Source of the DNA: Phycomyces nitens
Taxonomy: Eukaryota; Mucoromycota; Mucoromycetes; Mucorales; Phycomycetaceae
Direction: 5' to 3'
DNA length: 64,000 nucleotides
Assembly: GCA_022702545.1 (NCBI GenBank)
Contig: JAHRBC010000001.1
Location: 372,001-436,000 of the forward strand
The translations under genes and the position numbers were made by a program. A model generated the notes under the pieces. The model was not told where the DNA came from, made no database searches, and saw nothing but the letters and a program-made list of their open reading frames with translations. Numbering within the stretch: position 1 is the first letter of the stretch; every line of letters begins with the position of its first letter. This document shows, piece by piece, positions 1 through 62,661 of the stretch.

Positions 1-229
1 TGAATAGAAAGGGCAGTCTACAATGGAATAGAGTCAGAGAGGGAACAAGTATGATTGAAAGAAAATTTTTTACCTGGTGCCGATGACATCCTTACATAAG
101 TTGTTTGGCCAATCTAAGAGAGAAAGTGAAAATAATTTTTATCAAGATGATGATACCAGTGAATGCGGCCAGTGAGTATTTGTCTAGATGGCCATTGTGG
201 AAAGGATGAGTTGCAATGGGAGCGCACAT
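1..229 (-). CDS. Third gene of element A, small-exon gene (partial)
   Basis: This is an unrecognised spliced gene read on the minus strand. An ATG at 229-227 opens an exon ending at 157 with donor GTATCA. The next exons are 113-74 (acceptor CTCTCTTAG, donor GTAAAA) and 17-1 (acceptor CATTGTAG), and the frame stays open across all three exons to the window edge. A further exon upstream is likely, because acceptor TTTTTCATAG sits directly before 229, donor GTAAGA lies near 285-290, and a TATAAAG box is at 470-464. The position matches the third genes of B and E: divergent from the companion gene and next to the element end. Function unknown. The exact start is uncertain. Confidence 0.5.
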
Positions 230-289
230 CTATGAAAAAGAGATTAATTTGTGTGTATAAAGAGGTATAAAAAATGTCTTACCAGAGAA

Positions 290-659
290 AGGCGCCAATA
301 TCAAAAAAGCAAGGAAAAGGAAAAATAAAGGGAACCAAAAAAAGGAGAGAGTCTGAAAAAATTTTCACCTTTGAAGCATGCTGCGGAAAGCATGATGGAT
401 TGAGCCCAAAAACAATATCAAGGCCGATTTGCATCTCAGTGCTTCAAGACAATAGAGGAACATCTTTATAGTCATTCAAAATGCCTATATATAATGACCT
501 TTTTGATATTCAACCTCTCTTACCTTTACACACACACACACACACACTTACTCACTCACTCACCCAAACAGTTTTTGTATGTATATGGTATTTATTTTTA
601 TTTCAATTGAACAAAAACTAATAATTATAATCGAAATATACTTTACCATATTCTAGAAA
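290..659. promoter_or_regulatory. Divergent promoter region between third gene and companion gene of A
   Basis: No gene is needed to explain most of this interval. It holds a TATAAAG on the minus strand (470-464) facing the third gene, an ATATATAA on the plus strand near 487, a CA dinucleotide run (about 531-546) followed by CACT repeats, and then the plus-strand leader of the companion gene. The long plus-strand reading frame at 274-471 looks like the shadow of an upstream exon of the third gene. Confidence 0.4.
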
Positions 660-1831
660 ATGGTTAACCAAAGAAGAACAATTGCTCCTCGTCCCACTCC
701 TGCTGGTCCTGCTCCTGCTCCTGCTCCTGCTCCTGACATGGAACAGATTATGGCAAAGCTTTCCGAGATGGAAGGCAAAATGACAAACGTCGAAGTGCAA
801 GTGGGGTCTGTAAAGGCTCAACTCAACGTTGTTGTGGCTGGTAATGCTTCAGCCATTAGAGCAATCGGTGCATTGGGTAGTGCCCATAACACTGCTCTTG
901 TCAACTCTCCTGCCATTCCTGTTGCACCTGTTGCTCTTCTACCAGTTGTGCCAACCAAGCAGACAAACAACGATGTCTATGTAAGTAGCAAATTATATAG
1001 TATGTTATCAATTCATTATCTCATATACTGTGTCAGACGGCAATTCGCAAATTTATGTGGAAGCCAAAGTTTTCGTCGAGAATAGCTGCAGAGATGTTGG
1101 CAAACAATAATAAGCCAAAGTGGAATACAAACGTTCCTTTCAACCAAAGTCCAAACAAGGAGTTAGTTGTTAGGATCCTCAACTACTTGGAGCCCAAGTT
1201 TGAGAGCAAGGGAATGAGGAGAAGCGATCTGTACAAGAATCTTCACACCAACTTCAGGAGCCAAAGTTCCAGAGACAAGAAGTCTTCTTCGGAGAAAGCT
1301 GCCGTGAACACTCGTTCAAGAAGGGCAAACCGTGCAGGCGAGGTAAGATATACTTTAAATAACTAATAAATATTTAATATCAAAGAAGCAGTATTAACTG
1401 AGAATTTTAGAGCCTTTCTCGGCGCTTGAATGCTTACCTTGACAATGAGGACACAATCAATGAGATGATGGGCAAAGATTGTGCCAACATGATAATAAAG
1501 GAGGCAATGTCCGAGGGTGAATCTGACATAGAGACATCTGAAAGTGGTACCAAACGTGTCATCCGTACTGTTCGCCCAGGATGGAGAAGTGATGAGGTAA
1601 ATAATAATAAGGCAATAACTGGGTTACGTGTCTGAATTGTTATATAAAATATTAATACTTGTATTTCAGTTTAATAGACTCATCACTATTGTTGACTCTC
1701 ATGTCCTTGATGGAATGGGTTTGCATTCCCATCAATTCTTGCCTCGGGTTTTTAAGAGTGTGTCAAACTCAGCGGCCCCAAATGACGTGGTTTCCCGCCT
1801 CCCACAGTGGGCTTTTAGAAACGATGTATAA
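660..1831 (+). CDS. Companion protein of CACTA element A
   Basis: Four exons join in phase 0: 660-980, 1037-1342, 1411-1596 and 1670-1831. Donors are GTAAGT, GTAAGA and GTAAAT; all acceptors are AG. The N-terminus has a proline-alanine repeat (residues about 14-25) and then a heptad-like helical stretch. Exon 2 is basic near its end (SRRANRAGE). Exon 3 holds MSEGESD and ends in RPGWRSDE, and the C-terminus is LPQWAFRND. Exon 2 is 306 nt and exon 3 is 186 nt, identical in length to the copies in B and E. It lies tail to tail with the transposase, as a TNPA-like helper would. A role in binding the element's ends is inference; I recognise no named domain. No stop or frameshift is seen. Confidence 0.82.
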
Positions 1832-1960
1832 ATAAAGTTGTTGTTTATATTTTCTCACCCACTTCCCCAAGAACGTAATACCGTCAATATATATAAAGTA
1901 TATTTTTTGGTGCCTTAATTTTGGTTATCTTTAAAAGAAGAAGATATTTTTTATTTTATA

Positions 1961-4900
1961 TTAGGCGCAGATTTTTTTGGGAAGAGGGATGACGAGCATT
2001 GTTTTCCTATTAGTTCGAGTGATTTGCTGTCCAATGGCAACTTCTAACAAAATCCTATGCACTGGAAGAATACTGTTCAAGTCATCTGGAGAATGCCTTG
2101 GGAGATACACCTCAACACCTTCATTCTCTCGCGTTCTATCACAGGTTGTGACAAACCATTTAACAAATGCGAAAACATGTTGATTGTCATGAACCATGCG
2201 AGTCGGGTGGAGATCATCAACTGGTGGTGGCACGAACTTGTGTGTAAAGAGATACTGAATCTGGCCTGTATATGCATTTACAACGTCCTCATTGCTGCCA
2301 ACAAACAGTGCTTGTATAAACGACCCTCCATTTCCTTGTCTGTTTGAACCGCGATATACTTGGCCAAGTAAGTTGATGGACTTCAACTTTGTGATCTCGT
2401 TATCAACAAAGGAAAACGGGGAGAAGGCGTGCTGATAGCTGGTAAGACTGGGAAGGTCATAAGCATGCTTATAATAATCCAGCAAATGTGGATAATCGAT
2501 ATCACCAATTAATGTTTTCATTCCAACTTGCAGAGGAAAAGCTGAAGGAGGAAGAGGCTCGTTACCCTTTGCAGAATCCATTGTGGTCAGAGAAGCATTT
2601 ACAAAATCTTGCAAGTTGAACTGAGGATGATTGATTGGCGAAGTTGTGGCTGGAAGTGTGGGTGTAGATACGAGCTTGGCAAAGACAGAAGAGAATGGGA
2701 TCTTACTGGAGTATCCAAGGACTGCTTGCACATAATCGGCCTTGTATGCTTCTTCTACGAAATTCCTCATGTAAGTTGCCTCAAAACTATCCTTTCTGTT
2801 AGTGCTCACGTTCTTTAGCAAACCGTTGTATCGCTCGAACCCAAAGAGCCAATAGCCATACACTGGTCCAAAATCACGAATGGTCTCGCGAAGATGGAGG
2901 TGCAGATGCATATTGCAGGTGAGGACACTAGGAGGGTAAAGACGCTCGCACTTTTGACAGAATTTTTCAAGGTAGTCATGGGCATCGTCAAGTTCTTCAA
3001 ATGATAGGGATGGCTTTACAAGGAGACGGCAGGCATCGACAAAGTCCATCCAGTTTCTGAACTTGTCATCATTGAGAACATCTTTCAACAAGACGGGAGA
3101 GTACACCAGCACCCAGGACTTCCATTCGTCAGCTTTCATAAATGAAAATCCCTTTCCAATTTTCGCTGTTAATGAAGTGTATGAAGCTGGCAGGATCATT
3201 GTCTTGGCGATTTGCTCCATGTCATTAAGTTGTCCATTATTAATATCGCCACCAGCGATCCACTTGTCCACCATCCTCTTCGCCGTACCCAAGAATAAGT
3301 TGTGCATGGGATCAATGATCGTTCCACGTACTAGATCAAAGTATCCAAGGCGATGCAACTGCGACCATCAAACACCATTTTCGACCTCCAGCTGATGCCT
3401 TTCTGAGGGCGTACTTGCACTCTTCCACACCTCAGCATGCACCCTGTTTTCCACACCATTACGAATAGACCACTGCGAATAGTCGAAACCACGGAAATCC
3501 ACACTGCTTGTCCCAGCAAGACGACTGAATTGACGGCTGCATTTGTAGCAGGCGTTAGTGCTATTGTGGGACGTAAATCCGCTTGTTTTTCTGGCTGCTG
3601 GAATATCACATGCCACCATAAGGAGCGCAGCACGGACAGTTGTTCCAGATCCACATTCAAAGGTTGGAATCGTCATTCCAATGTACAACTGCTCAAGGTC
3701 ATCCACCAACGGCTTGAGATAGTTGTTGATCTCATAAGATTTGGGTTCCTTTGGTCCAGGCATTAACCCAACCAAGACGACGTTCTCTGGTTTGAATCTT
3801 TCATCTCTGGGCAAGTTGTTGATTGCCAAATATATAGCACCAGAGGAGTGTGTTACACCATCGAACGGCTGAAACCAGTCGATGTTTAGAGTCAACAGAA
3901 GAGAACGAGGGCGGGCAACAAATGAAAGACCATCACTGTCTTTCAACTCCTTCCACATCTTGCCATCGTAAATGTCGCACATGGTGTCTGTCACCTTCAG
4001 CTCGTCGTTCCAGACGCCGATCTTCTGCTCGAAACCAGGACGAAGAAAGAGAACCTTGAGTGCATCTTTGATGGACTGATACACAAAGATTTTCTTTGGC
4101 ACCATGGCACCAGACGTCGACTTCTTTGTCAGCTCACAGTTACAAGTTATATTTGCGCCTATTTTCACAGAGCTGCAGAGAGGGGGAACGGAAATAGATT
4201 CTTCGTATATTTGATGACAATCTGGACATGACACGAATCGTTTGATATCTTTGGTGATATCACTAAAACCCGTCATCTTCTGAAGACCAGCAAGACTTGT
4301 TGGGAGCTGAAAGTCTTGTCCGTAGACTGTCAAGAGCTCATTGACAAACTGGATCAATACAACGGCGCCCTTGTTGACTGCATAACGGGATGCAAAAAGA
4401 ACAACGAAAATGGCAATGGCCCTGTGCACTGGATTTTCGGGCATACCAGGAGCACCAAAGGGTTCTGTTTTAAAAAGGAAAATTATTAACACTCAATTTT
4501 GGCATGCTTCTTTATGATAGTTATTCAATACTGACCTTCGCCGTTGAACTCCTCAACATCAATCTCCTCGACATCACTCTCCACATTGTCGCCATTGTTG
4601 CTGTCATTGACAATCTCGGTGTCATCGCAATTGACCTCATTGTCAACCAAATCATCGTCAGACATCGGGACGGAATCCAAAAAGGTAGGTTGGCCTGACC
4701 GCCCATTGTTTCCATGGATTCAGATTCAAACATCGGGATTGCTACAAATATGGAATAGATTAGTTTATTGCCCTTAAACTGGTTTTCAAATAAATATTTT
4801 TTACCCTCAACATCAACATCCATAATGACACTTTGTGTGCCTGAGGTTCAATTAAAGAATAATGGTTATTATTGCGCAGTAAATATAAAATTAATACATA

Positions 4901-5046
4901 CTACTCTCAGTTCGTCCAGCCTCTTCAATTCTTGCTCTTTTGGCATGACGCTGATAATTGCGTCTGGATACCATAGAGAACCCTTCTTGGTTACCATTGC
5001 ATTTGTTACAGTAACAGGCAGTGTTGTTTTGGGAAGCAGAAGACAT
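1961..5046 (-). pseudogene. Tnp2-like CACTA transposase of element A, disrupted
   Basis: Exons on the minus strand are 5046-4902, 4840-4805, 4741-4536 and 4464-1961. Exon 1 carries a zinc-finger-like CYCNKC followed by a histidine in QRHAKR. The main exon has the three hallmarks of Tnp2 transposases: NIDWFQPFDG, ACDIPAARK followed by ACYKC, and DPMHNLFLGTAKRM, then a DFGPVYGYWLFGFERYN block. Two lesions are visible. A TGA at 3370-3368 stands where B has CGA, in NGV(R)WSQLH. Exon 3 is 206 nt instead of a multiple of three, with one base missing around 4677-4683 compared with B and G. The gene therefore looks recently dead. It ends in VIPLPKKICA. Confidence 0.9.
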
Positions 5047-5288
5047 ATTTTGTGTGATTCGATTGTAAGATAAAAAAGGAAACAAGTGCTTCATATGTTT
5101 TATTTGCTGTCAATTTATAGACAAAAAAAAACTATTGTATTTTACTTGTTTGCCCGAACCAATAGGATCTGTTAAAAAGTCTTTTTTTATTTGAATAAAA
5201 AAAATCTTCTGAGTTGAAAAAAAGGCCTATATTTCCTACACCTTCAAGTACTCTTGGTGCACTAGTAATCCAGCCCATTTTTCCAGTG
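5047..5288. promoter_or_regulatory. Transposase promoter and right terminus of element A
   Basis: The segment upstream of the transposase start includes a block (about 5145-5170, CCCGAACCAATAGGAT) that recurs inverted upstream of the G transposase near 62806-62822, so it is a conserved family promoter. The interval ends with the terminal inverted repeat at 5288. Confidence 0.55.
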
Positions 5289-11415: not shown

Positions 11416-11819
11416 CACTGGAAAAATGGGTCTGAATACTCATGTGTGAGCAAACACTGCAAAAAGCATACAGTTTCATAGGGTAGAAAGAGCGGGAATA
11501 TTATGTTTAAATCATTGATTTCTATATGGTTTTACTCTAATTACCATCAAGATACCTAGCTTAATAATAATGGGTAGAAAGAAGCTTGAGACCATAAAGA
11601 AACCCTTTACCTGTTGCACCACAATAGAGTTCTTTAGTCCATCATGTACAATCCATAATATGTACTCTGTGTAAACACTAGTACTCCAAGCTTATGTGGT
11701 CAGTAAAATCCATTTTGAGTTTCATTTGTTATAAAAAAAGATTAAGAATTGGGTACCACCTCAGCACATACACTTTCTCCATTTCATAATATTATTTATT
11801 AATTAATTTATAATAGACA

Positions 11820-11905
11820 ATGAAGAGTAAGTGTAGTTTACGGTACACGATTATGGAGAAAGTGTAGTTCATGATATACAATTATGGGGAAAGTATAGAT
11901 TTTAA
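11820..11905 (+). repeat. Subterminal repeats of element C
   Basis: Three imperfect units of about 30 bp share AGTGTAG and ATTATGG[A/G]GAAAG; an inverted relative (CTTTCTCCAT) lies near 11774. Such subterminal arrays are where CACTA helper proteins bind in plant elements; binding here is inference. The same array is in D. Confidence 0.55.
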
Positions 11906-11959
11906 AGAAATGTTTTAGCTGAATAATTATTTTATTTTTATTTGTTTCATAAAAAATAT

Positions 11960-12620
11960 TCTCTAGGTGGGGGCTATAATCGTACGATTGATTTCTTTAC
12001 TAGAGCTACTGTATCTATTTGTATTTGTAAATAAATACTCACAGCCAGATCTTGGGCAAAACGAAATATACTCAGGGAGTTGTCTAGTGCTATATTTTAT
12101 ACTCTAGAATAAAGAGTCCATTAGAATATAGTCATCAAAAAGTAAAATATATATATTGTGGTACTTACAGGCATCATAACAAACATTTTATACTCTTTGA
12201 TCCTGTTTTGAAGTACCACAGTTAGTATAATGTATGCTGAAAGTATAAGAGACTTGTTTTAAAATAACTTACTTTATATCATTGGCCACAGCACGGCAAT
12301 ATAAATGAGAGATGAGCCAAAAGAATCTATAACAGATATTTAGTAACTGTAAAACAAGAAATAATATTTTATATATATTTACCATAATATTTTTCAAGAG
12401 CCAAGACCAGAGTAAGTAAGGATAATAGGAAAGCAGAGTATAGAAAGATGGTGAGTACTTGTGCTAGGCATAATGATATCTTACGTTTGCATGTCTTATT
12501 TGGTCTTTCAAGTAGAAACAAAGGGAGAATATACCCTCTATAATCAAGTCCCATAGTCAGTAAAAATAAAAAATATATTAAAAAAACTTACTGTGAATTG
12601 AGTATCAAAAATAATAAGAG
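11960..12620 (-). CDS. Third gene of element C (small membrane-like protein, spliced; exons unresolved)
   Basis: On the minus strand the frame 12554-12369 encodes a short, very hydrophobic segment (TIFLYSAFLLSLLTLVLAL) preceded by a basic stretch RPNKTCKRK. It is conserved with one residue changed (A to V) in D. Splice-like signals are dense: GTAAGTTTTTT near 12586 with branch-like ACTGAC and acceptor TTATAG, donor GTAAATAT after EKYYG, acceptor TGTTATAG, donor GTAAGTTA, acceptor TTTCAG, donor GTAAGTAC. The gene is divergent from the companion, as in B and E. I cannot fix the exon joins. The apparent ATG may lie inside an intron. Function unknown. Confidence 0.45.
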
Positions 12621-48849: not shown

Positions 48850-48872
48850 CCACTGGAAAAAGTATACGATTT

Positions 48873-49173: not shown

Positions 49174-49285
49174 TCTTTAGACTGAAAAGCAAAGGGAAAT
49201 AGTATCTTTAGACTGAAAAGCAAAGGGAAATAATGTCTTTAGACTGAAAAGCAAAGGGAAATAATGTCTTTTAGACTGAAAAGCA
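49174..49285 (+). repeat. 31-bp tandem repeat, about 3.5 units
   Basis: Units start at 49174, 49205, 49236 and 49267 with the core TCTTTAGACTGAAAAGCAAA; the last unit is cut short after AAAAGCACCG. Confidence 0.92.
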
Positions 49286-50285
49286 CCGTATCATACGTTT
49301 ACATACAAGCCTCATTTGTTGATTTTTAAAAAATAAATTATTTTTTATTTATTTTTTATTTATTTAATATATATATTTCTAGATGAATGCTCTAATCATA
49401 TAATAATAATATATATGCTATTTCTAGAGTATTGTTTGATATTTTGCATCTAGCAAGACCAACAAGTTCCTACCTGATAGATATTGGGTACTGTCTTGGA
49501 GAAGAATGGTGCTATTTAATAGTAATAGGAGCAAAGATTAATTAAATAATCGTAATGGATCAAATTATTTGCTGTTGTACTTACAATGTTGATATCGTGA
49601 GTAGATAGACTACTTGATAGATTCATAAGAATATCTCAGCATATTAGCTGTCAGTTGAGATTGTCTAAGAATTGTAAAGTTATTAGTCACTACAAAAGTC
49701 TAAGAGTATTATGTAGATAAAACTTATAAAATAAGCTACTTAATTGTATAGTTTTACTATGCTTTTGGTAATATATAATCGTGATCTGTAGTAGACTAAA
49801 AAGATATGGGAGTGAACTGAATCATCCTACCTACTGGTGTACAAGAATCCAATGTAGAATATTTAAATGCCCTCAAACAGTGCAAAACTTAAATATACAT
49901 TGTAGCCACAATATATTCCTAGTCAATCTACCCTTTTTTGCATTGTATTTTACAATACACAGACAGTTTGTGTCAGGGGAGATTGACCACTTACAAACAA
50001 CCAGTTTTATCTTTCATTATATTTTATAGTGGGTTTTATAATATGTTTTAACAGTCCATCAAGGATGATTGTAGACTATTGCAAGGTAATTGTAGTTATT
50101 CTATGCAAACAAGCCTCTCTGGCTTATTGTTTTTTTGGAGCAATAGATTCTGAAAATTTTTATTTTTTGTTTTATTTGATAAAAATACATTTGCGCTATA
50201 TATTCTAGTCTCTAGATTATTTCTTTGGTATATCTATTCTACCAATTGATATTTCTTGGTCAGCACCATCAACTGGTTCTTAATA
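49286..50285. other. AT-rich part of I without recognised gene
   Basis: Probably covers the 3' end and downstream region of the I third gene on the minus strand plus subterminal DNA. No frame here can be defended as coding. Confidence 0.35.
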
Positions 50286-50574
50286 GAGCCAGGATACTTA
50301 CCTAGCTGAGAGAAAGCCAATACTGTCTAAAAGTAAAAGAGAAGATTATTAGTAAATTATTTTTATATAAATCATTCATTCTTATACTTACATTTTTAAT
50401 ATAATAAATAGAACATTTGATAGACTCTCTGTAATATACCAACAAATGATTATTGTCTAATAGATATATATTAATATTTGTAGATAAACAATATGTAATA
50501 CTAAAATATTAGTTTACTTACAAGATATAGTCATTGGAATGGCCAGATAATTTCAATCGGGAATCAATATAAGC
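50286..50574 (-). pseudogene. Third gene of element I, 3' exons (cut by H)
   Basis: On the minus strand, small exon-like segments are bounded by splice signals: donor CTTGTAAGTAAA near 50524, acceptor TATATTACAG near 50442, donor GTAAGTAT near 50393, acceptor TTACTTTTAG near 50334, donor GTAAGTAT near 50303. Inferred exons are only 25-55 nt. They continue the gene seen at 62661-62118 on the other side of H. Confidence 0.45.
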
Positions 50575-51476
50575 CACTGCAAAAATACCCCCAATTCCCA
50601 TATGTGTAGTTGATACAGAAGATATGAGATATAAAGGTCAATTTTCTAGCTCAGGCCCTTTTTTGTGAGTTAAGAGAAAAAATTGTATTTTAGATAGATT
50701 TTATTGGTTGTAGAGAATAGTGTAGCATGAAAAATAAATATTAAACTCAAATCATATCAAATAAACTATACCTGAATATATCTTCTTTACTGTTAAACCA
50801 AAACATTCTAAATTATTTATTAAACAATGGCTCCTATCCGTAAATCTACCAGAACAAAAGAATGCAGATGTTCTATTTGCAAGAACAAAGAGGGAGGATT
50901 TGATTTTCTCACTGTTCAAACATTTAAGCGTCATATGCTTAAAGAAGATGCCAAAAACAGTTTTTTCGGTGGCAGATGTAAGATATATTTTATATTTGAA
51001 TTTGTAAATTATTTAATTAATAATAAATATGTTTTCGAATTAAATAGCAATGGAAATTGTTGATGAAGAAGAGCAATACTTTGAGGCCGTAGACAATGTA
51101 GAGGCTATGGATTTTGAGTCTGGTGGTAAGGATTTCTTAAAATTTTATTGTTTTTTTATTAAACCAATGTTGTTACACTTGGGCAGACTTGGAAAACGAT
51201 ATTAAAGGACATGAGGGGGTACAAGAACCCATTAGAAACCTACCTCTTTCTGAATCTGACGCCATTTTTGGTGCAGAGGATGAATGCAGCTCGTTTGGTG
51301 ACTCTGACTCTGACTCTGATAACGAAAGTGAAGATGAGATGCTTGATAATGAAGGTTTGTGTAGTACCTGAGATGCAAATACACCCATCTATATAGATTA
51401 TATATTAATGAGGTGTTTTGTGTTGATATTTTTCAGAATTCAACTCAGAATTGAGTTTCATTCACAGCTTTGTGGT

Positions 51477-51762
51477 TGAGGTATATGGTTTGTTAGTATC
51501 TCTTAAGGGAAATAAGAATACTGTGAGAGTGTTATTTATTGAAGAAAGAATATTATTATTGCTTATATACTATTATTCAAATTCCCTTGTAATTAAAGTC
51601 CCCGTTGTGTAATGGTTGGTTATCACTGTAGAAGTGTGAAGTGTACATGTGCCTGGTGTGTAACTGCTCCTGAGATGTTAACTTGCCAGGGTCATTAGCA
51701 AGTAGTAACTGGAGATTGGTTGAGGAGTTTGTATTTCACTCAATTGTGGTGTGTATACCACA
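51477..51762 (-). repeat. 3' LTR of F
   Basis: Begins TGAGGTATATGG and ends TATACCACA (plus-strand reading); 286 bp. Followed at 51763-51774 by TTACCCCCTTCC, the polypurine tract on the minus strand. Confidence 0.94.
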
Positions 51763-51828
51763 TTACCCCCTTCCAGGTTGAATAACCGTTTCGCAGAGGT
51801 TGAGCTACTTTAAACTGAAAGGACCATG

Positions 51829-54800
51829 TTAGCGTCTTGTGCGTTTGCTTTGGCGTGTAGGTGTATGCTGCGTGTTGCGGCGTTTGCTAATGAACGTTGC
51901 ATTGACTGTGCGTGTCTGATTTAGTGGTGTCTTGTCTGTTGGTGTTGTACCAAGTCGATCCCAATAATCCGCGATAGGTTTAGGGCTGCTAAAGGATTCT
52001 GGGTCTTGCCATGTATCATCCTTTTCTTCATAGCCTTCCCATCTAACTCTATATTCGTATTTTCCTTTGGACAGTTCTCTGTGGGCTACAATTGCTCTGA
52101 CTGTAAAGTACTCTTTACCGATTTTCTGGACTTCATCAAGTGAGACGAGTTTGTCCTGTGAAATTAATTTGAGTTGTGACGGTGGATATTCTCTGGGCAT
52201 CAGCAGTCCTTGTTCATCCATGAGAACATAAGAACCTCCCTGTTTCTCTCTGACTACAGTATATGGACCTTGATATGCTGGTTCCAATTTTCCGTGTTGC
52301 AGCTCTTTAATCATGACTTGGCTATTAGCAGGGAATTTTATCATCCTGTACTTATTATCAAACTTGCCCTTTTGTGCATTAGTCATTGCTTTTGCTCTTT
52401 CAGCGATTGCCGGAAATACAACGTCTGCCATGTCTTTGATGCGTTCTTGCAATTCGTCTTCTGTGAGAGCTGGAACTGATGGATCATCGGCGTACCTTTT
52501 GAAACCGTTCATTGCTCTGGCGAACATGAGGTTGTAAGGAGCCGTTCCATTACGCTTTGTTACTTTGGCATTCATTGCTAGTTGTATACTAGGCACATAG
52601 AGGTCCCAATCTCGAGTCGCTCCTTTTATGCATTTCTTTATAGCATTCGTTGATGTCTGTACCCATCGCTCGGCGACGCCGTTTGCTCTAGGGTGATAAG
52701 GCGTAGCTAATCTGTGGTCAAACCCAGATGCTTCAGCTAGTTTCTTCATAAGTGAGTTTACGAACTCTTTGCCATTGTCTGATTGTAGGTATCTAGGGAA
52801 TCCGAAGTTACAAAAGACGTTGATTACAGTGTTCACTACGGTGTCCTGTGTCTTATCAGGTATTGCACGTAATACACAAAATCTTGTGCAAATGTCTACC
52901 ATTACGAGTAAGTAGTTATTACTGTTATGTAAGGTGGTGAAAGGACCGGCGAGGTCTATAGCCCAATGATCGCATGGCAAATACGCATGGATTGGTCTTA
53001 GAGGATGATAACCTTTCTTTGCTATGTTATACTTTTGGCACTCTATACAGCTTTGTACTACCTTGACGGCATCTCTATGTATGTTTGTCCAGTGAATGCC
53101 TTCATTATGAAGTGAGTTGGTTATGGCGTCTGCTCCAAAGTGTCCGAAAGCATGGGCTTTGGTGAGAAGGTCTTCTCTTTCACTCTCTGGTGGTGTTAGC
53201 ATTTCATCGTAATTATTGTTAACTAGCGTTTGTTGTCTATTTATGACCATTTTTCGGCCGCTACAAGTTTCTGCGTAGTCATTACCCCCTTCCAGCTCTT
53301 TATCCGTAGGAAAAAGGCGTGATAATTGGTCGGGTAGGATGTTGCTAAGACCAGGAAGATGGAGTACCTCAAATGTATATTCGAGTATAGTGTCTAGCCA
53401 GTTTATCATCATAGCATTGGCTATCTTTTGTGTGTGTATATAAGTGAGGGCTTTATGGTCGGTGTACAGCGTGAACGGATTACCCCATAGGTATTTGTGG
53501 AACTTGTTCAACGCGTATATGACAGCTAGCAGCTCACGTTTAGTAGTAGAATAGTTTCTTTCACTTTTAGATAGGGCTCGTGCCATAAAACCTATATGTC
53601 GTGTCTCTCCATTAATAACTTGGTAGAGTACAGCGCCTATGCCTACGTTAGATGCGTCCGTCGCCACACTGAATGGGTATTTCAGGTTGGGGTAACACAA
53701 TATCGGTAGCCTAAGTAGTATTGCTTTAAGGTTGTTGAAACTATCTTCTTGTTCTTTCGCCCATAGAGGTGTGAGATCTCCCTCGTTGCGAAGCTTATCC
53801 AGAGGGGCAGTGAGTAGAGATACATTAGGTATATGCTCTCTGAAGTAGTTTATGACGCCCAAAAAACGTTGTATGTCTTTTCCGGTGCTCGGCAAAGGCC
53901 ACTCTTGAATGTTGCTGACTTTTCTTGAATCCAAGGAAATGCCTTTTTCTGATACACAAAAACCAAGTAGGAAAACTGCTCTTTGTGCAAAGTGACACTT
54001 CTTTGGATTTAATATAAGATTAACCTCAGTGAGTTTTTCTATTGCGGCTTTGACATGCGTTGCGTGTTCTTTCATGTTGTGAGAAAATACTACGATGTCA
54101 TCAACGAACGTCGTAACAAACGGCATGTCTTTGAAGGCAATGTTCATAACCCGCTGGAATTTAGATGAGATGGGCTTAAGTCCGAAGGGACAACCGCGAA
54201 ACATGTACTGTCTTCCTTTAAAGGTGAACGCTGTCTTTGGTCTGTCTGCCTTGAACACCTCAAAACGATGAAAAGCACTCGTCAAATCAAGGGTGGTGAA
54301 TATAACCGCCTCTTTGAGAGTATGGAAGATGTCCCTTATAAGTGGTAGGGGATATCTATCTTCCTTCAGTAGTTTATTGATATGTCTGGGGTCTAAGCAC
54401 GGTCTTCTATCCGTGTAGTTGCCAAACACATCCTTTTTAGGTGCCAGTGTAATCGGACTATTCCAAGACGTATTGTTGGAGGCAATCTCGATTGTACCAT
54501 TTGCTAACCAATTTTCTACTGTTTCCTGTATTCTGGCTTCATATACTACGGGCAGAGGGTATTGGCGTCTAAACGACGTAACTCCCTTGGGCGTGTCGAT
54601 ATGAATAACCGATTCAGGTATTGTGCAAAACGAAGTTGTAGGTATACATCTATTTTCTTCTATGGCTAGCTCTAAAAATCTCATAAATTGTTCTTGTTCT
54701 TCACATGTACCCGCAGGTGAATTATTTGGTTCTGGTACATCATTAGGGATGGTACTTCTTGGTGGATCTGTCTGTTGATCCTCCCAAGATGTCGCCAAGT

Positions 54801-56520
54801 TAGTTATAGCCATACCCAGTCTGGGCATCAAGTCTGTGCCAATGCTCATATGAGTGTCCATGGCTAAACTCATGACGACAAAAGTGTGCTCTAGTTTTTG
54901 TTTTTTGTATACTAGCTCTACGTTCTCTACTGTGCCTAAATGTTCTGCTACACTGTTCTCAGATGCCAAGTAAATATTTTGATTGTCTAAGCGACTTTTA
55001 CTTATGGTTAGAGAAAGTGAAGAAGCAAGTTCTGGGGAAATAAACGAGGCATTTGCGCCCGAATCTACCAAAGCCCACACACGGTTACTCTGGACAATTA
55101 TAGGAACATAGAGTGAGCCGTGTGTGGAAGGTACCCTCTCAAACTTGTTCTTATAGTTACCTTGCGCTTGAATGTTCAGTTGGCTCATGTCCACCTCCAT
55201 TCCGTTGCTCTCAGCACTTACGCGGTTGACCAACCTTGTGCTTCGATTTGCCAGAATTGGGGCTTTCCCTTTTGCCACCTGGTACTCATAGCATTTGTGG
55301 CCAGAGACATATGGCACTTTCTGGCAGTAGAAACAAAGAGTTGACTTTCTTACCACTGGCCCTGTTGCTGGGGCTCTTCTTTCCTTGGGCTTCCAGCCTT
55401 GCAAGACGTTGCATTCCTCTGCCGAGTGTCGGCCCTTGGGGTGTGCTGGGCAGTTGCCTCTTCTGTTGCCTTGTGTCACATGGCCGTCGTTTCTACCCCT
55501 CTTGTAGCTGCTTGCCGCGTGCTGGCTCTCCTCCTGTCTTCTCTTGTGGCCACTGTTGGTATACTCCTCCAGGAAAATACCGTCGGCTTCCTCTCCACTT
55601 GTTGCGATTACCAACGGGATGACAAGGTTCAAGTTGTCAGGGATGACCAACCTGAAGTTCTGCGTCAACGTTTGCCAGGCTTTCTCGCGAACGTTCTTTA
55701 CCAGCGAGGAGACAAACATCCACACCAGTTGCTGGCTATTGTCCATTGCGGTGGCATGGGCAACCTCCTGGAATCTCTCAGCGTATACCCGCACGAGTTC
55801 TCCTGGCTTCTGTCTGACATGGCTCAGCTCGCTCTTCTTTACCCACATGTGGTATGGGTTGCCATACTCTTGCTCAAGTTGCTGGCGTACGACCTTCCAG
55901 GTGTATCCTTTTCTGGCCTTGGTTCGCTCGAATGTGAGCCTTTGGTTCTGGTCACACGTCAACCAGAAGAGACGCTCCCAATGTTGGTCCAAGGGGAGGT
56001 TGTGTGCCCTCAACTGCACTTCGAACTCGTTGAGGAAGTCCATCACTGACTCATGGACCTTCTTGCTGGGCTGTCTGAGAGGCCCTCCTTTCAACTGGAA
56101 CGCGGGCAGGTTCGTTGGCACAAAGGATTCCAACTTGTTCTCTGCCTTCTTTCCAGATCTCTTCGCTATAGAGTTCTGGATACTCTCTTTGGCCGAGACG
56201 TCAGCCAAGACTTCCTGTGCGGTCAGGAATGACGCCCATTTCTCTTGGGTGAGGGTAACGACCCTCTTTGCCTCGTTGTGCTCTTCCACCGAAGCGTTTG
56301 GTCTGGCCAGGACTTTGAGCAGGTTGGCCGATGCTTTCTTTTGCTGCGCATCCAACTGTTCTCCCAGGGCCAAGACATCAATCTCTTCATCGTTGTTGCC
56401 ATTCTCCAGGGCGTCCACCATGATCTGGTCTTCCGCGGCGAAGCTCTCTCCACTGATGCTGATGTTCTGTTGGCTGTCGTCAGAACTGGTCAATGAAGCG
56501 TCTGCGATATGATCAGACAT
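51829..56520 (-). CDS. Gag-Pol polyprotein of gypsy element F, 1563 codons
   Basis: Uninterrupted single frame. Domains: gag capsid at about residues 165-270 (VMDFLNEFEVQLRAH), a degenerate zinc knuckle (CFYCQK then GHKCYEY) at about 393-410, protease DSGA at 486-489, reverse transcriptase at about 640-830 with TTLDLTSAFHRF and FVDD at 805-808, RNase H with ATDASNVGIGAVLY near 953, integrase HHCC near 1130-1167 (HAFGHFG, CIECQKYN) and core with DLAGPF, QSDNGKEF and NGVAERW, then a chromodomain at about 1475-1530 (YRVRWEGYEEKDDTW). The chromodomain suggests targeting to marked chromatin, as in other chromoviruses (inference). No gag-pol frameshift is needed. The ATG at 56520 lies 43 bases inside the 5' LTR boundary. 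Confidence 0.97.
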   Translation of the reverse strand: MSDHIADASLTSSDDSQQNISISGESFAAEDQIMVDALENGNNDEEIDVLALGEQLDAQQKKASANLLKVLARPNASVEEHNEAKRVVTLTQEKWASFLTAQEVLADVSAKESIQNSIAKRSGKKAENKLESFVPTNLPAFQLKGGPLRQPSKKVHESVMDFLNEFEVQLRAHNLPLDQHWERLFWLTCDQNQRLTFERTKARKGYTWKVVRQQLEQEYGNPYHMWVKKSELSHVRQKPGELVRVYAERFQEVAHATAMDNSQQLVWMFVSSLVKNVREKAWQTLTQNFRLVIPDNLNLVIPLVIATSGEEADGIFLEEYTNSGHKRRQEESQHAASSYKRGRNDGHVTQGNRRGNCPAHPKGRHSAEECNVLQGWKPKERRAPATGPVVRKSTLCFYCQKVPYVSGHKCYEYQVAKGKAPILANRSTRLVNRVSAESNGMEVDMSQLNIQAQGNYKNKFERVPSTHGSLYVPIIVQSNRVWALVDSGANASFISPELASSLSLTISKSRLDNQNIYLASENSVAEHLGTVENVELVYKKQKLEHTFVVMSLAMDTHMSIGTDLMPRLGMAITNLATSWEDQQTDPPRSTIPNDVPEPNNSPAGTCEEQEQFMRFLELAIEENRCIPTTSFCTIPESVIHIDTPKGVTSFRRQYPLPVVYEARIQETVENWLANGTIEIASNNTSWNSPITLAPKKDVFGNYTDRRPCLDPRHINKLLKEDRYPLPLIRDIFHTLKEAVIFTTLDLTSAFHRFEVFKADRPKTAFTFKGRQYMFRGCPFGLKPISSKFQRVMNIAFKDMPFVTTFVDDIVVFSHNMKEHATHVKAAIEKLTEVNLILNPKKCHFAQRAVFLLGFCVSEKGISLDSRKVSNIQEWPLPSTGKDIQRFLGVINYFREHIPNVSLLTAPLDKLRNEGDLTPLWAKEQEDSFNNLKAILLRLPILCYPNLKYPFSVATDASNVGIGAVLYQVINGETRHIGFMARALSKSERNYSTTKRELLAVIYALNKFHKYLWGNPFTLYTDHKALTYIHTQKIANAMMINWLDTILEYTFEVLHLPGLSNILPDQLSRLFPTDKELEGGNDYAETCSGRKMVINRQQTLVNNNYDEMLTPPESEREDLLTKAHAFGHFGADAITNSLHNEGIHWTNIHRDAVKVVQSCIECQKYNIAKKGYHPLRPIHAYLPCDHWAIDLAGPFTTLHNSNNYLLVMVDICTRFCVLRAIPDKTQDTVVNTVINVFCNFGFPRYLQSDNGKEFVNSLMKKLAEASGFDHRLATPYHPRANGVAERWVQTSTNAIKKCIKGATRDWDLYVPSIQLAMNAKVTKRNGTAPYNLMFARAMNGFKRYADDPSVPALTEDELQERIKDMADVVFPAIAERAKAMTNAQKGKFDNKYRMIKFPANSQVMIKELQHGKLEPAYQGPYTVVREKQGGSYVLMDEQGLLMPREYPPSQLKLISQDKLVSLDEVQKIGKEYFTVRAIVAHRELSKGKYEYRVRWEGYEEKDDTWQDPESFSSPKPIADYWDRLGTTPTDKTPLNQTRTVNATFISKRRNTQHTPTRQSKRTRR

Positions 56521-56563
56521 TTTTGGTGATTTGAAGTAAAGTAAAACAATTCACAGTAAAAAA

Positions 56564-56849
56564 TGAGGTATATGGTTTGTTAGTATCTCTTAAGGGAAAT
56601 AAGAATACTGTGAGAGTGTTATTTATTGAAGAAAGAATATTATTATTGCTTATATACTATTATTCAAATTCCCTTGTAATTAAAGTCCCCGTCGTGTAAT
56701 GGTTGGTTATCACTGTAGCAGTGTAAAGTGTACATGTGCCTGGTGTGTAACTGCTCCTGAGATGTTAACTTGCCAGGGTCATTAGCAAGTAGTAACCGGA
56801 GATCGGTTGTGGAGTTTGTATTTCACTCAATTGTGGTGTGTATACCACA
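56564..56849 (-). repeat. 5' LTR of F
   Basis: Same 286-bp sequence as 51477-51762 with a few differences (for example CCCCGTC for CCCCGTT, AACCGGAGATC for AACTGGAGATT). Promoter side of the element on the minus strand. Confidence 0.94.
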
Positions 56850-59388
56850 GTGGTCAAGGCTCTTGCCCTGTTCATTTCCTTTTACGTTGTCAATGAAGGC
56901 GCAATTATCTTGATTGCAATCATAAACAAGATCTTGGATTTTTTTGGCGATTCTTTCCGAGTCCCATCAAGTGTCTCTGGTCTCAAAAGCATGGCAGGAA
57001 TGAACACCTTGACAAAGGGAATCAAAAAATATGTTGCATGTGGTGAATGTCACAGTATTTATGAGAACAATGATGCACCTCTTTTCTGTACCTTTGACAA
57101 GTTTGGAAACAGCGCCTTGTGTGGCCATAGCTTGTTCAAGTCCAGTTCGTCCATAATCCCAAAGAAGTCATATGTGTACCAGTCAATCAAACACTCTCTG
57201 CAGACTCTCTTTTCTCGGCCCGATTTCGAAACCCAAATCAACTCTTGGAATCGTGGTCCCAAAGTGGAAAAGACAATGTTTGATGTGTATGATGGTGCAA
57301 TGTGGAACAGTGTTAAAGATATCAATGGCAACCTCTTTGTTGATGACAGCCGCTCTCTAATGTTAACACTGAATATTGACTGGTTTCAGCCATTTGATGG
57401 TGTCTCATATTCGTGTGGTGCCATTTATTTGGCAGTAAACAATCTTCCTCGCGACGTCAGGTTTAAAAAGGAGAATGTCATCCTCGTTGGATTAATGCCA
57501 GGGCCAAAAGAAGCAAAGACGTCTGAAATCAATAACTATCTCAGACCTCTTGTTGATGAATTGGAAGATCTGTACATTGGTATCAAGGTCAAGACGTACC
57601 AATGTCCATCTGGTGTGAGAATCCGCGCTGCTCTCTTTGTTGTTGCTTGTGACATCCCCGCTGCAAGAAAAGTATGTGGATTCACATCCCATACCAGTAC
57701 CAATGCCTGTCATAAATGCAATCGTCAATTCTCTCGGTTAGCTGGAACGAGCTCTGTTAATTATTCTGGATTTGATTCTTCAAAGTGGCTCCTTCGCACT
57801 AGAGATGATAATCGTAAGGATGCTGAGGTCTGGAGAAATGCAGCCACTCAAGCTGAGAGGCAGCGCCTTGAAGTTGCCAGTGGTGTTCGCTGGTCCGAAC
57901 TGCATCGTCTCCAGTACTTTGACGTTGTCCGCTGCACGATTATCAATCCAATGCACAATCTTTTCTTAGGCACTGCCAAGAGAATGATGGAGAGATGGGT
58001 TGCAGATGGTCTAATTGACAGTAGGAAACTCGTTGCCATGCAGAAGATGGTGGAGAAAATGGAGTTGCCAGCTGACTATACGGCACTAAAGACAAAGATT
58101 GGGAAGGGGTTCCCATTCATGAAGGCTGACGAGTGGAAGTCGTGGTGCTTGGTGTACTCTCCCGTGGTGTTGAAGAACGTGCTGCCACTGCCAATGTTCA
58201 AAAACTGGATGTTTTTGTCAATGCTTGCCGTTGTCTGACAAAGCCAAGTATCTCTGAGGACGATATTGAAGACGCACATAACAATCTAGAGCAGTTTGGT
58301 AAAGGTTGTGAGCAACTGTATGAGCCTGACCTCCTCTCTCCCAACATGCATTTACATCTTCACCTTCGTGAAACCATCCTGGACTTTGGGCCAGTTTACA
58401 GCTACTGGCTTTTCGGTTTTGAGAGGTACAACAGTATCCTCAAGAATATCAATACCAACAGGAAAAGTGGATTCGAGGCCACATATATGAGAAGCTTTGT
58501 TGAGGACACAAGAAAGGAAGATTTTGTTCGCGGTTTCCTAAGCACACCAAGTGGACAATATTTCTCAGATGTATTTAGCAAGTTGACTATCAGTCCACGC
58601 ATTGCCACCACCCCAATTCCATACTTTGACATATCTGTCTTCTTATTGCCTGACTTCCTTGAATTAGCAGAGAACCCACTGATGACAATCCATGGTAATG
58701 AGCCTTTGCCGCCCTCAACTCTGCCATTGAAAAAGAAACCAATGAGCATGATGCCTAGACTTGAATATGATTGTCTAGTAGAATACTACCAGGTCATTCA
58801 CGATGACAAAAATATCAAAAGCTGCAATGACAACATGACTTCCTCTGCTTTTGTCAATGACTGGATTGAAATGCTCAAGTCCATCAGTATCCTTGGCCAG
58901 ACATTCAAAGGAAGGAGTGGTAGAAGTCGGCATGGGTCATACATCCAGGCATTGTTTGTTGAGGAAAAGACAGAGGCAGTGTACGCGTATGTTGGAGAGA
59001 TTCAGTATCTATTTGTTCACACATTTAGTCCTGCTGTTTCTTCTTCGCATCGTGGAAATGCCTACAACAGTCAACACACCTTTGCTTTTGTAAACTGGTT
59101 CAAGACCACATCAGACACCACCAGAGAGGTTGAAGGAATTGAGGTTCACAAGGATGAATTTTTGGCTCTTGACTTTCAAAGCATTCTTCCTGTCCATCGG
59201 ATTCTCCTGCCTGTTGCAATTGTGGATTATAAATCTAGTAGTAACATTAACAAAAAACTAGTTGTCCCTTTGCCTAGAAAGGTTTCTGCCTAAATATATT
59301 TATCTTATCTCTCTTGTTCTTAATCATAACTTCATAGTTTGTTTTGCGAATCATGTGTTTAAAAAGTAAAAAAGACAAAAACAAAGAT

Positions 59389-60620
59389 TTATTCATTTTT
59401 GAATACCCAGGCAGGCAAATTCAAAGTCAGGTGACTTGGGGCAGGAATCTCCTTGATCGTTTTTTGCTGTCTGGGCATTCTTGTCTTTGTCTTTGTTGAT
59501 GACCGTCTCAGGTCATCCTCTCTTGCAAGACAGTCAATGACCTCCAGAAGCCAGTTCAACTATATTAAATTTATCAGTCTTTTCTCATCAATCAGCACAT
59601 CACTCTACAAAATATTAATTACCTCATCACTTCTCCAACTGGGACAAGCAACACAGAGAACACGCATGCTAATACCAGGCGCAACGTCTTCCATGTCTGA
59701 TTCACCATCAGAAATCACATCCTTCTGGAGGACATGGAGATAGGCCATCTCATCAGGGTTTTCAGGCTTATGGCCCATCTCCTCATCGATTGCCCTCCAG
59801 TGACGTTTGTAGGCCTCCACCCTGCGCAAGTGGATCTATAAAAATTTTCAGATTAAATTAAAAATATCAAATCGTCTTTATACTAACCTCGACGAGCCTG
59901 GTATTAGCCCGAACCTTTCTCTTCTTGGCAGAAGCTTGCTCTTCACTCATGTTTGAAGTGAGATGGTAGTACTTGTAATTGTTTTTAATTTTTTGCACTA
60001 CCATGCCAGGCCAAAAACCAGCAGCACGAGGCTGCGAGAGAATGTAGTCTCTCAAGTAGTTGATGACCCTGACATTGTCTGGGTGATTAATCTTCTTGTC
60101 CTTATTCCATTTCTGTTTGCCTTCATTCTCAGCAATCAGAGCAGGATCGTTAGACATGAGGTTCTTCTTCCACATCTTCTCATTAATGAATTCCTAGATA
60201 TAATTTATTAGAAAATATTTTTTAACAAAATAATAATAATATTCATACCAAGACAATCGCACTCATATCACTAGTACCAAGTGAGCTGGAGGGGCCAACA
60301 GAAGGAGCCATTCCAACAGGACCAGCTTGGCCAAGAGGGAGCTGGCTCTGAACACCACTGGCATGGGCTTCCATGAATGTACTCATGGTCTGGTTGGTCT
60401 TGCCAGCGATGTCATAGACCATTCCCATTCTGGACTTGAGGAACCTCAAGTCTTCAAGGACAGTGGCCATTTCTGTCTGTCCTTGACTACTTTCCTCACT
60501 GCTACTGGGGGCCCTTAGAAGGATTTCATGCTGGCTAATACGGCCAGCAGCAACACGGTGAATGGGAGCAGTTTGGTTTGCTCTGGCTTTGCGTCCTGAG
60601 TTTCTCTGGTTTGAAGACAT
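59389..60620 (-). CDS. Companion protein of CACTA element H
   Basis: Exons on the minus strand are 60620-60249, 60193-59888, 59835-59623 and 59559-59389, all phase 0; exon 2 is again 306 nt. The N-terminus is basic (SSNQRNSGRKARANQ), followed by a helical stretch (LEDLRFLKSRMGMVYDI). Exon 2 ends with basic KKRKVRANTRLVE; exon 3 has KDVISDGESD and ACPSWRSDE; the end is LPAWVFKNE. Sequence identity to A/B/E is low except at these landmarks, yet exon structure is the same, which supports one ancient family. No stop is seen, although the neighbouring transposase is dead. Confidence 0.82.
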
Positions 60621-61160
60621 TTTCTAAATATTTTTTTAAAATAAAATAAAATAATAAGCATAAATAAATCCATATATATTAACATATATTTCTTTGAATA
60701 CATAAACATATATTATAATTTGCAGTATAAGGTATAGTGTCAAATAAGAACAATAGTATTATATATATATATAAGACTGTATTTATATCTTTAAAAAATA
60801 TATCTGGAGTACAGTAAAAAAAAAGAGTCTTGGATACACAGTTTTCATAATCCCTTTGTTCTCATAATTTATTAGGGCTTACTATAATCTAAAAATGCAT
60901 ATGGATTCTTTTTTCCCAATTTTCTCTTTTTCTCTCTCTTTTTACTTTTTGCTTCCTTTATACTCTCTGGTAAGTACTTGAAAATTTTTCACGCAATTAA
61001 AGATAATCTTTAACATCTTTTCAATTATCTAAAAGGTGTCCTATAGTCACTTTTATTCAAGCTTGCACAAGAAAAATGTAAATGGGCGCACTATTTTTTA
61101 TTGCTGTTGCTAATCAGTAATCTTCATCTTGTAGATTCAAAACAACTCCTTTCAATCGCA
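60621..61160. promoter_or_regulatory. Divergent promoter between companion and third gene of H
   Basis: AT-rich spacer with TATATATATATAAG near 60762 and a pyrimidine-rich run near 60918-60960, comparable in layout to the spacers of B and E. No other gene seen. Confidence 0.4.
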
Positions 61161-61447
61161 ATGGCCAAAGATGACAATGATGAAGTCAAATGGACAGAAT
61201 GTACTTGGTATGTTCAAATATTTTATCACTATTAATACTAATATATTCTGTCTTTACTATCAGCCTTTTTATCAAAGAAAATTGCCGCGTTTTAACAAAG
61301 ACATGGAATATCCAACAAACCAGTTTGTCTTGGTAAGTAATCAGTCATTCCTATTGCTTTTCTAACAGAAAAATATAGATATCTTTTTCTATTACGCGTA
61401 CACATTTTTTGATTGCTATATCATTATCTATCTTGAGATACTGTTTG
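61161..61447 (+). CDS. Third gene of element H, small exons (structure partial)
   Basis: Exon-like segments 61161-61207 (ATG, donor GTATGT), 61264-61332 (acceptor ACTATCAG, donor GTAAGT) and 61369-61447 (acceptor TCTAACAG, donor GTATAC). The position, divergent from the companion and near the element end, matches the third genes of A, B and E. The frame from the first ATG stays open through exon 2 but meets a stop at the start of exon 3, so either the start, a junction or the gene itself is not as drawn. No similarity to the B/E protein is visible. Function unknown. Confidence 0.4.
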
Positions 61448-62117
61448 GTATACCTGAAAATTCGGTCTCAAAGTCTTAGTTGTCTACTCTGTTTGAGCAA
61501 CTACTTTTCCAGTTATTCAAGATGATAGTCAATGAATCAGTTATGCTTTCTACCCGTGTTTCAAAAGGTAAAAACAAATTAGTATCAATATAGCTATAGC
61601 CATGAATCTAGACCAAATTACTAGGCTGTATATTATGAGAAAAATATTTTATCAATAAAAATCTATTCGTAAACTATTTTCCATGACTTATTTATAAAGA
61701 AGTATAAAATAAACCCCCAATTGAAAGTGTTTAAAGTGTCAAACAGATTAAACAACCAATAAATATATGTCCTTTAGAACATAGGTGACTAGTTTGCAGA
61801 AAATAGTCGAAAAGTTTGCATCTTGATCTATTAAAAAATAGATTTTTTTATTGATATTGAAAAAATAATTCATGTAACGTTTGACTAAAAAGAAATAAGA
61901 TAACACTTTCAGTTATAGTTCTGTACACTCTTGAGTTTAACAAGCCTACACGTCCAAAAGCAGAGCTTTATATCCACCGAATTACTTCATTATCTTATAT
62001 GTGTTGTTTTTTATATATGCAAGATAACATTTCAATTTAATTCTAGAATTTGTTTTTTATTTCACTCAGAATTTTACAAACTATCACATATGGGAATCGG
62101 GGGGTATTTTTGCAGTG
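61448..62117 (+). other. 3' part of third gene and right subterminal region of H
   Basis: AT-rich, with AATAAAAA near 61650 as a possible poly(A) site and the terminal repeat at 62088-62117. Further small exons may be present but I cannot delimit them. Confidence 0.35.
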
Positions 62118-62661
62118 AAGAGCATAGCAAGATGTCTGTGATAGATGTTATTAAAGAGGACATATTTATAATATAAAAGGTTTACCAGAATATTATATTG
62201 AGATAGATAGAAAAATAGAATTTGTGGCTATATATAAAAGAGTGATTTGGTTAATAAAGAATAGCTTTAGCATAATATGATCTTACCTTTGGATATACAG
62301 CCAAGTGCAATAGAGAGCCCCATAATATATTTATAAGCAGTTACCTATGAATAATAAAATATATTGAGTAAAAAATATATTCACAAGAGAAAGAAAAGAA
62401 TTAATTACCAGAGTATTTTGCGGTAATATTTAGGCACAAAAGAATATAAAAAATAAAAAGGAAAAACAAATACTTTGTATTAAAAGGCTGTTTGACCCTG
62501 ATAAAATGCAGGCAATAAAAATGATAATCCAAAAGAATATGCCTGCCGTCATTTTCATATCTTTGTAATTTATAGTTTATTAGGTTGAAAAAGATGTCTA
62601 TATATAGAACAAGAGTGTACACAATGCTGTTAAATAATAATAAAACTATAAGACAATTCAT
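62118..62661 (-). pseudogene. Third gene of element I, 5' exons (cut by H)
   Basis: The minus-strand frame 62661-62401 is strongly hydrophobic (CLIVLLLFNSIVYTLVLY, then FFLFIFYILLCLNI) and ends at donor GTAATTAA after KYSG near 62409. Further splice-like signals follow: acceptor TATTCATAG near 62346, donor GTAAGATC near 62287, donor GTAAACC near 62199. Element H is inserted at 62117 and the gene resumes at 50574. Hydrophobic character and position match the third genes of C and D. Confidence 0.45.

What the first reader, a model, noticed from the sequence alone, without database searches (positions are those of the whole stretch)
1..62661. CACTA elements here carry a third, divergent small-exon gene in a fixed three-gene plan
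In A, B, C, D, E and H the order is end - third gene - companion - transposase - end, with companion and transposase convergent and the third gene divergent from the companion; I shows the same gene in the same place. Known CACTA elements have a transposase plus a TNPA-like helper. A further conserved gene with tiny exons and often hydrophobic segments is not part of any description I know. Its sequence differs greatly between families while its position does not.
Basis: partly seen in the sequence, partly recalled or inferred. Interest (0 to 1): 0.88.

Follow-up and report, generated by a model that had tools for sequence, protein, structure and literature searches.

The report
Traded third gene in fungal CACTA transposons
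CACTA jumping genes in a Mucor-like fungus carry, besides a transposase and a companion gene, a third unit with strong splice signals at a fixed place, and transposon families whose transposases diverged long ago share nearly identical copies of it, likely by trading it; what it does is unknown.

Summary
The fixed plan is real. In A, B, C, D, E and H (and, by splice signals, I) a unit lies between the companion and the element end, on the strand divergent from the companion. Its intron signals exceed dinucleotide shuffles (0-1 of 100-200 reach them) and are mostly absent from the other strand and the transposase side.

First, the third units do not all differ between families: A, B, E and two families outside the window (L056, L060) share one cassette, promoter region plus unit, 1.2-2 kb, about 88-96% identical between the closest pairs, introns included. 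Yet their companions are only 41-48% identical in protein and their transposase silent sites are near saturation. The cassette has therefore moved between families. Second, it is not an ordinary multi-exon protein gene: its tandem mini-exon pairs vary in number (1-6) and length, break frame, and show no codon constraint. Only the last two exons do, in a 46-codon frame (E/L060 p=1.7e-5, frame chosen after looking) kept in 40 of 40 cassettes that include those exons. For C/D, H and I coding is not shown. Function is inferred only.

The parts
1..5288 (-). Element A, cut by the window start (other end C1:371012, about 990 bases left of the window); companion 660-1831 (+), transposase 1961-4492 (-); third unit from about 299 leftwards out of the window (-).
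   Evidence: End and flank GTG, Pfam, companion model, intron chain 0/100.
11416..24264 (+). Element B, 28 of 28 end bases matching, flank CTA, interrupted by element C.
18571..21087 (+). B transposase ORF (Transposase_21).
21220..22334 (-). B companion, 4 predicted exons.
22500..23868 (+). B copy of the shared cassette: promoter region and third unit; two mini-exon pairs 22871-23291, exons 6-8 at 23372-23429, 23494-23567, 23648-about 23820.
23518..23737 (+). Predicted 46-codon frame across the last two exons of B (intron 23568-23647).
11455..17798 (-). Element C inside B, flank AAA; third unit about 12655-11963 (-), companion from about 12918 (+, with an in-frame stop), transposase 14208-16803 (-).
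25680..38890 (-). Element D, same family as C, no duplicated flank, interrupted by E; third unit about 26815-26187 (-), companion 27147-28384 (+), transposase from 28491 (-).
30363..37479 (+). Element E inside D, flank GTA; transposase ORF 31194-33317 (+), companion 35107-33897 (-).
35108..37076 (+). E copy of the shared cassette: promoter region 35108-35524, first exon, four mini-exon pairs 35639-36503, exons 6-8, AATAAA near 37020.
48851..50574 (-).
50575..62117 (+). Element H, interrupted by a gypsy-type retroelement 51477-56849; transposase ORFs 56796-59293 (+), companion 60620-59389 (-).
60895..61600 (+). H third unit; predicted introns 60970-61035, 61078-61134, 61208-61263, 61333-61378.

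Best explanation
Besides transposase and companion, these CACTA elements carry a third transcription unit, predicted to be spliced, facing away from the companion; in the A/B/E group the promoter region plus this unit is a cassette that anciently diverged families have likely traded by recombination, and it is predicted to act as an accessory regulator of the element. How it would work: the stretch between companion and third unit serves as a shared two-way promoter (inferred). The third RNA would be joined from a first exon, one to six tandem mini-exon pairs and three 3' exons, and end at AATAAA (predicted). In B, E and L060 its last two exons hold a 46-codon frame under codon constraint, so a short peptide would be made there, the tandem exons forming a leader (inferred). 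Homology between cassettes lets gene conversion or recombination carry the cassette from family to family while each family keeps its own ends, subterminal DNA, companion and transposase (exchange follows from the discordance; the mechanism is inferred). The likeliest benefit is sustained expression of the element, for instance against host silencing; this step is untested.
For: Position, strand and intron signals in A, B, C, D, E, H, L056, L060, L058 and I, with L057 weaker at 5/100. Cassette sharing: E/L060 92.5% over 1,946 aligned bases with companions 41% and transposases 64% identical in protein; A/L056 96% over 1,215 bases with companions 48%; B/E 88% over 1,270 with companions 42%; silent-site difference of transposases 0.66-0.75; introns as similar as exons; identity falls to about 40-67% on both sides. 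Codon constraint in the last two exons: E/L060 10 of 36 synonymous against 3 of 126 nonsynonymous sites, p=1.7e-5; E/B p=0.004. The 46-codon frame is kept in 30 of 30 B-search loci, in window E, and in 9 of 11 further E-type loci; the 2 others (L061, L066) gave no frame, and the stretches matched in them lack the last exons. Two M. saturninus gene models end in the same sequence. A/B donor hexamers agree at 23 of 24 bases against 67% overall, binomial p=0.0009.
Against: No RNA evidence. The tandem mini-exons show no codon constraint, and some units have a GC donor or no acceptor. A and L056 carry the homologous frame with TAA just before it and no ATG. ATGs lie upstream of the 46-codon frame, so its start would need leaky or renewed initiation. 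The intron before the last exon ends in AAG in L060. The frame was chosen after looking, and the next stretch of the last exon gave p=0.003 in a frame with stops. Most copies are near-identical, so their intact frames say little about selection. For C/D, H and I coding is not shown.
Confidence: 0.45

Rival explanations
1. Noncoding reading: the third unit is a spliced noncoding RNA, or simply the upstream arm of a two-way promoter. What is traded is the companion's promoter, and the spliced transcript comes along or keeps that promoter open.
For: The mini-exons break frame and show no codon constraint; exons differ as much as introns; no good frame in I, no constraint in C/D; A/L056 frame stopped; the cassette includes the region upstream of the companion start.
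Against: Codon constraint in the last two exons of B/E/L060 (p=1.7e-5), in one frame continuous across the splice. In B/E the similarity starts some 165-225 bases away from the companion start and is highest over the unit itself.
Confidence: 0.3
2. Passive hitchhiker: an old accessory gene, now mostly decayed, stays because it does no harm; gene conversion keeps its copies alike because they are numerous.
For: Copies are near-identical, so their keeping the unit proves little. Units with lost splice sites persist. A/L056 has a stop in the homologous frame.
Against: Unrelated units fill the same slot and strand in several families. Donor sites are kept between A and B. Codon constraint in B/E/L060.
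Confidence: 0.2
3. A fast-changing protein gene in every family, for instance an anti-silencing protein like VANC of VANDAL elements.
For: H has an open frame of 63 codons over three exons in 7 of 7 copies compared; two M. saturninus gene models cover the E-type unit.
Against: H: 7 synonymous to 14 nonsynonymous distinct changes, p=0.076, the same counts as in a frame with a stop. C/D: 1 to 9-11 against D, L049 and L051, 5 to 8 against L050. The last part of the H frame differs between copies by an indel. The H model found no relative.
Confidence: 0.05

Closest known systems
TET/JBP dioxygenase genes carried by fungal DNA transposons, EnSpm/CACTA among them (PMC12730594; abstract and passages seen)
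   Same: An extra gene besides the transposase, in several fungal DNA transposon lineages; the paper reports transmission from one lineage to another and a likely role in escape from silencing.
   Different: There the gene is a recognisable enzyme and moves between superfamilies; here no Pfam family reaches its cut-off in the models tried, and the part shared is a spliced unit with its promoter region, among CACTA families of one genome.
VANDAL elements with VANC anti-silencing proteins, Arabidopsis (PMC10398659, PMC5735166; search listing with abstract starts only)
   Same: DNA transposons with a gene beyond the transposase; noncoding regions take part in the contest with silencing.
   Different: Other superfamily (recalled: MULE-related) and a large protein; no such protein found here.
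En/Spm of maize and SmTRC1 of Schistosoma, CACTA elements with several spliced transcripts (PMC1636069; passages seen)
   Same: CACTA transposase plus further products from spliced RNA; tandem repeats inside SmTRC1.
   Different: There the products come from alternative splicing in the transposase transcription unit; here the unit is separate, divergent from the companion, and shared across families.
Mucor saturninus hypothetical proteins INT47_005716 and INT47_002869
   Same: E-values 3e-19 and 8e-10 to the B third model; both end in the same last-exon sequence.
   Different: Gene models with no described function; a paper describing an M. saturninus genome (PMC7928374, passages seen) has no occurrence of 'RNA-seq' in its main text.

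Membership tests
CACTA (EnSpm) DNA transposons | Ends beginning CACT with a 3-bp target duplication | tested here: met
   B CTA, C AAA, E GTA, A GTG, L060 element ATA. D and H have the ends but no duplicated flank; no end pair found for L056.
CACTA (EnSpm) DNA transposons | Transposase_21 (tnp2) transposase | tested here: met
   Above Pfam cut-off in A, B, C, D, E, H and the ORF 40304-41704.
CACTA (EnSpm) DNA transposons | TNPA-like DNA-binding helper | not testable with these tools
   The companion has a conserved exon plan and motif but no Pfam family above cut-off; DNA binding needs experiment.
TET/JBP-carrying transposons | TET/JBP dioxygenase domain in an accessory gene | tested here: not met
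   Pfam at E up to 1 found no such domain in three companion models (H, B, E) and three third models (H, D, B).
VANDAL-type anti-silencing transposons | Accessory protein that undoes silencing of its own element | not tested
   Needs expression experiments.
Known RNA families | Rfam match in the third units | tested here: not met
   0 matches at gathering score in the window.

The most novel reading that the evidence does not exclude
CACTA elements of this fungus share an interchangeable accessory cassette: a two-way promoter driving a divergent spliced gene whose leader is an expandable array of mini-exon pairs and whose product is a 46-residue microprotein. It passes between transposon families like a plug-in part that keeps them expressed, while unrelated plug-ins fill the same slot in other families.
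Probability: 0.3. Interest if true: 0.82.

Novelty: new variant of a known kind. Interest (0 to 1): 0.62.

Why it matters
Transposon families are usually classed and dated by their transposase. Here one part of the element has a different history from the rest, so families in one genome evolve as mosaics and share a part that is not the transposase. If the unit proves functional, it is an accessory gene of CACTA elements in early-diverging fungi, where RNA-based control of transposons is already under study. Trading can be tested directly by comparing trees of cassette and transposase. The expandable array also offers a natural series of one to six mini-exon pairs in otherwise similar elements.

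Tried and rejected
(1) I first took the A/B/E unit to be plainly noncoding, because mini-exon lengths break frame and because changes in H looked mostly nonsynonymous by hand. The codon tests of the last two exons overturned this for B/E/L060; H stayed undecided. (2) Transposase-binding repeats inside the cassette: the 9-mers repeated in the ends of B, E, C and H had no copy in their third regions; A and L060 had no repeated 9-mer. (3) A captured host gene: the H model had no match at E up to 0.1 among 55 candidates, and the B model matched only two M. saturninus models among 53 candidates. (4) H protein constraint: p=0.009 for H/L044, but 0.24 for H/L043, and a frame with a stop gives p=0.0085 for L043/L044. 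(5) Loci that gave no answer: L059/L062 (only a companion end found), L061 and L064 (cut short); the intron test was null in L061. L063, L065 and L066 were compared by BLAST only and not put through the intron test. (6) The '92%' E copies are not a diverged family; they differ by extra repeat units. (7) Structure prediction, solved-structure searches and the phage, plasmid, E. coli, viral and bacterial collections were not used. (8) Print: the searches listed no paper that, judged by title and abstract start, describes such a unit in CACTA elements; capped lists, not whole results, were seen, and only the passages were read.
Full report
What is there. The window is G000:C1:372001-436000 of a 49-Mb genome in 11 contigs. 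It is a nest of CACTA elements. Ends and duplicated flanks define B (11416-24264, CTA), C inside B (11455-17798, AAA) and E inside D (30363-37479, GTA); D (25680-38890) and H (50575-62117) have CACT ends but no duplicated flank. A ends at 5288 and its other end lies at C1:371012 with the same flank GTG. The transposases carry Transposase_21. The companion profile found 11 proteins, from Mucor saturninus (97% over all 353 aa for H) and Phycomyces blakesleeanus (39-48%); only the 7,996 candidates sharing most words were scored. The host is thus Mucor-like; its species was not established.

Companion. A simple splice-aware gene finder recovered companions in A, B, D, E and H; in A, B, D, E and H one exon is always 306 nt, and a C-terminal motif like PSWRSDE is shared. 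L056 and L060 show the same plan; the L057 model deviates. The H and A models agree with independent database models. Companions and transposases are under constraint: ratios of nonsynonymous to synonymous change 0.30-0.55 for four companion pairs and 0.23-0.32 for four transposase pairs.

Third unit. The same splice scoring was applied to the companion-side ends. The best chain of non-overlapping introns on the strand divergent from the companion was compared with dinucleotide shuffles: B 0/200, E 1/200, C 0/200, D 0/200, H 0/200 reach the observed value; the opposite strands gave 200, 82, 61, 78 and 200 of 200. On the transposase side 5 of 7 tests had no intron (one of them only 141 bases long); B minus (7/200) and C minus (6/200) had one candidate each. 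Further: A 0/100, L056 0/100, L060 1/100, L057 5/100, L058 0/100 on its divergent strand, L061 100/100. The scores were set by me from recalled fungal splice rules, not trained; 15 companion introns score 3.75-6.32, those in third-unit chains 5.1-8.4 above a floor of 5.

Copies. A DNA search scores at most 40 candidates. Full or nearly full third regions were found at 35 places for B (all 1,930 bases), 33 of 40 rows for H (at least bases 1-1585), 36 of 40 rows for A (at least 13-1548) and 24 places for C (at least 1-1527). E has 3 full-length rows; most other copies match in two overlapping parts because their repeat number differs. Transposase_21 had 785 candidates; 150 were scored, all above cut-off. 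Copies listed as full are 93-100% identical, so they show recent multiplication, not constraint.

A shared cassette. A and B third units align at 67% with shared splice sites and polyadenylation region; four donor hexamers agree at 23 of 24 positions, binomial p=0.0009 at 67%. Beyond the window, family L060 (element C4:4365875-4372809, flank ATA) has a companion 41% and a transposase 64% identical in protein to E's, yet its cassette, from the companion start to just past AATAAA, is 91% (BLAST, 1,988 columns) or 92.5% (MAFFT, 1,946 aligned bases) identical. Family L056 has a companion 48% identical to A's and a 96% identical cassette over 1,215 columns. B and E: companions 42%, cassette 88% over 1,270 bases. 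Identity falls to roughly 40-67% outside. The right edge lies just past the polyadenylation region in all three pairs; the left edge varies: at the companion start (E/L060), a few codons inside it (A/L056), 165-225 bases short of it (B/E). Introns differ as little as exons (tandem array left out): E/L060 22/287 against 28/349; A/L056 8/274 against 18/568; B/E 33/286 against 33/349 (sums). Transposase silent sites differ at 0.66-0.75. Constraint on exons cannot explain near-identical introns beside saturated silent sites, so the cassette has moved between families. H shows a related mosaic: L043's companion exons differ by 9.9-15.7%, while its third unit from intron 3 on differs by 0-1.4%. One B copy, L028, carries the E-type residues in the last exon.

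Coding or not. The A/B/E unit holds tandem pairs of mini-exons: one pair in A and L056, two in B, three in L057, four in E and L060, six in L039, L052 and L065 (two spurious anchors dropped). Exon a is 48-51 nt (40 in A and L056), exon b 58-66 nt, pair sums 99-116. Units with a GC donor or a lost acceptor persist. Compared between E and L060, neither exon shows codon constraint. The last two exons do: E/L060 10 synonymous changes in 36 sites against 3 nonsynonymous in 126 (p=1.7e-5), E/B 6/36 against 3/126 (p=0.004), in one frame continuous across the splice. Among 357 contiguous 165-nt windows of the cassette the lowest p was 7e-4. Cautions: the frame was chosen after looking; the following stretch of the last exon gave p=0.003 in a frame with stops (E/B); B/A showed no constraint in ex7. 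From the ATG in the second-last exon the frame is 46 codons. It is kept in 30 of 30 B-search loci, in window E and in 9 of 11 further E-type loci; L061 and L066 gave no frame, and the stretches matched in them do not include the last exons. A five-base insertion in E lies just before that ATG and leaves it intact. A and L056 carry the homologous frame with TAA before it and no ATG. C/D: 1 synonymous to 9-11 nonsynonymous changes against D, L049 and L051, 5 to 8 against L050. H: 7 to 14, p=0.076, the same as in a frame with a stop. I has no decent frame.

Databases and print. The B third model matches two M. saturninus hypothetical proteins (E 3e-19 and 8e-10) that end in the same sequence; the two read exon a in more than one frame, as an automatic model would. 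The H model matches nothing at E up to 0.1. Pfam gives nothing above cut-off for three companion and three third models, Rfam nothing at gathering score in the window. The nearest precedent found is the passage of TET/JBP genes among fungal DNA transposon lineages, EnSpm included (PMC12730594, abstract and passages). A survey of Mucorales reports EnSpm and other superfamilies at one up to a hundred copies in its sequenced genomes (PMC7928374, passages), fewer than the 150 domains scored here.

Reading. Shown by sequence: fixed position and strand, splice signals, one cassette shared across diverged families, codon constraint confined to the last two exons of B/E/L060. Predicted: transcription and splicing. 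Inferred: two-way promoter, exchange by gene conversion or recombination, a peptide from the 46-codon frame, a role in keeping the element expressed.

Noticed in passing
L043, L044, L069 against window 59389-62117: H copies are mosaics: L043 pairs a companion 10-16% diverged with a near-identical third-unit 3' part, while L044 differs more inside the third unit than in the promoter region or companion.
   Followed up: partly
L028 (C6:4222231-4227161): A B-family copy (99% to B) carries the E-type residues in the last exon of the third unit, as if converted by an E cassette.
   Followed up: no
41705-42886 minus strand: Two strong introns upstream of the transposase ORF 40304-41704, probably 5' exons of that transposase.
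   Followed up: no
44093-47274: A 3.2-kb element-like stretch with CACTACGGC ends and flank TGA, without transposase ORF of 150 aa, holding a 222-bp tandem repeat.
   Followed up: no
43059-44022 and 48474-48850: An inverted repeat pair, 97% complementary over 262 bases, with related copies at 48474-48850.
   Followed up: no
L054:62-1726: A reverse-transcriptase-like ORF (read by eye) just left of element A.
   Followed up: no
whole genome G000: 785 Transposase_21 candidates, 150 scored and all above cut-off; many CACTA copies are over 95% identical, which suggests recent or ongoing activity.
   Followed up: partly
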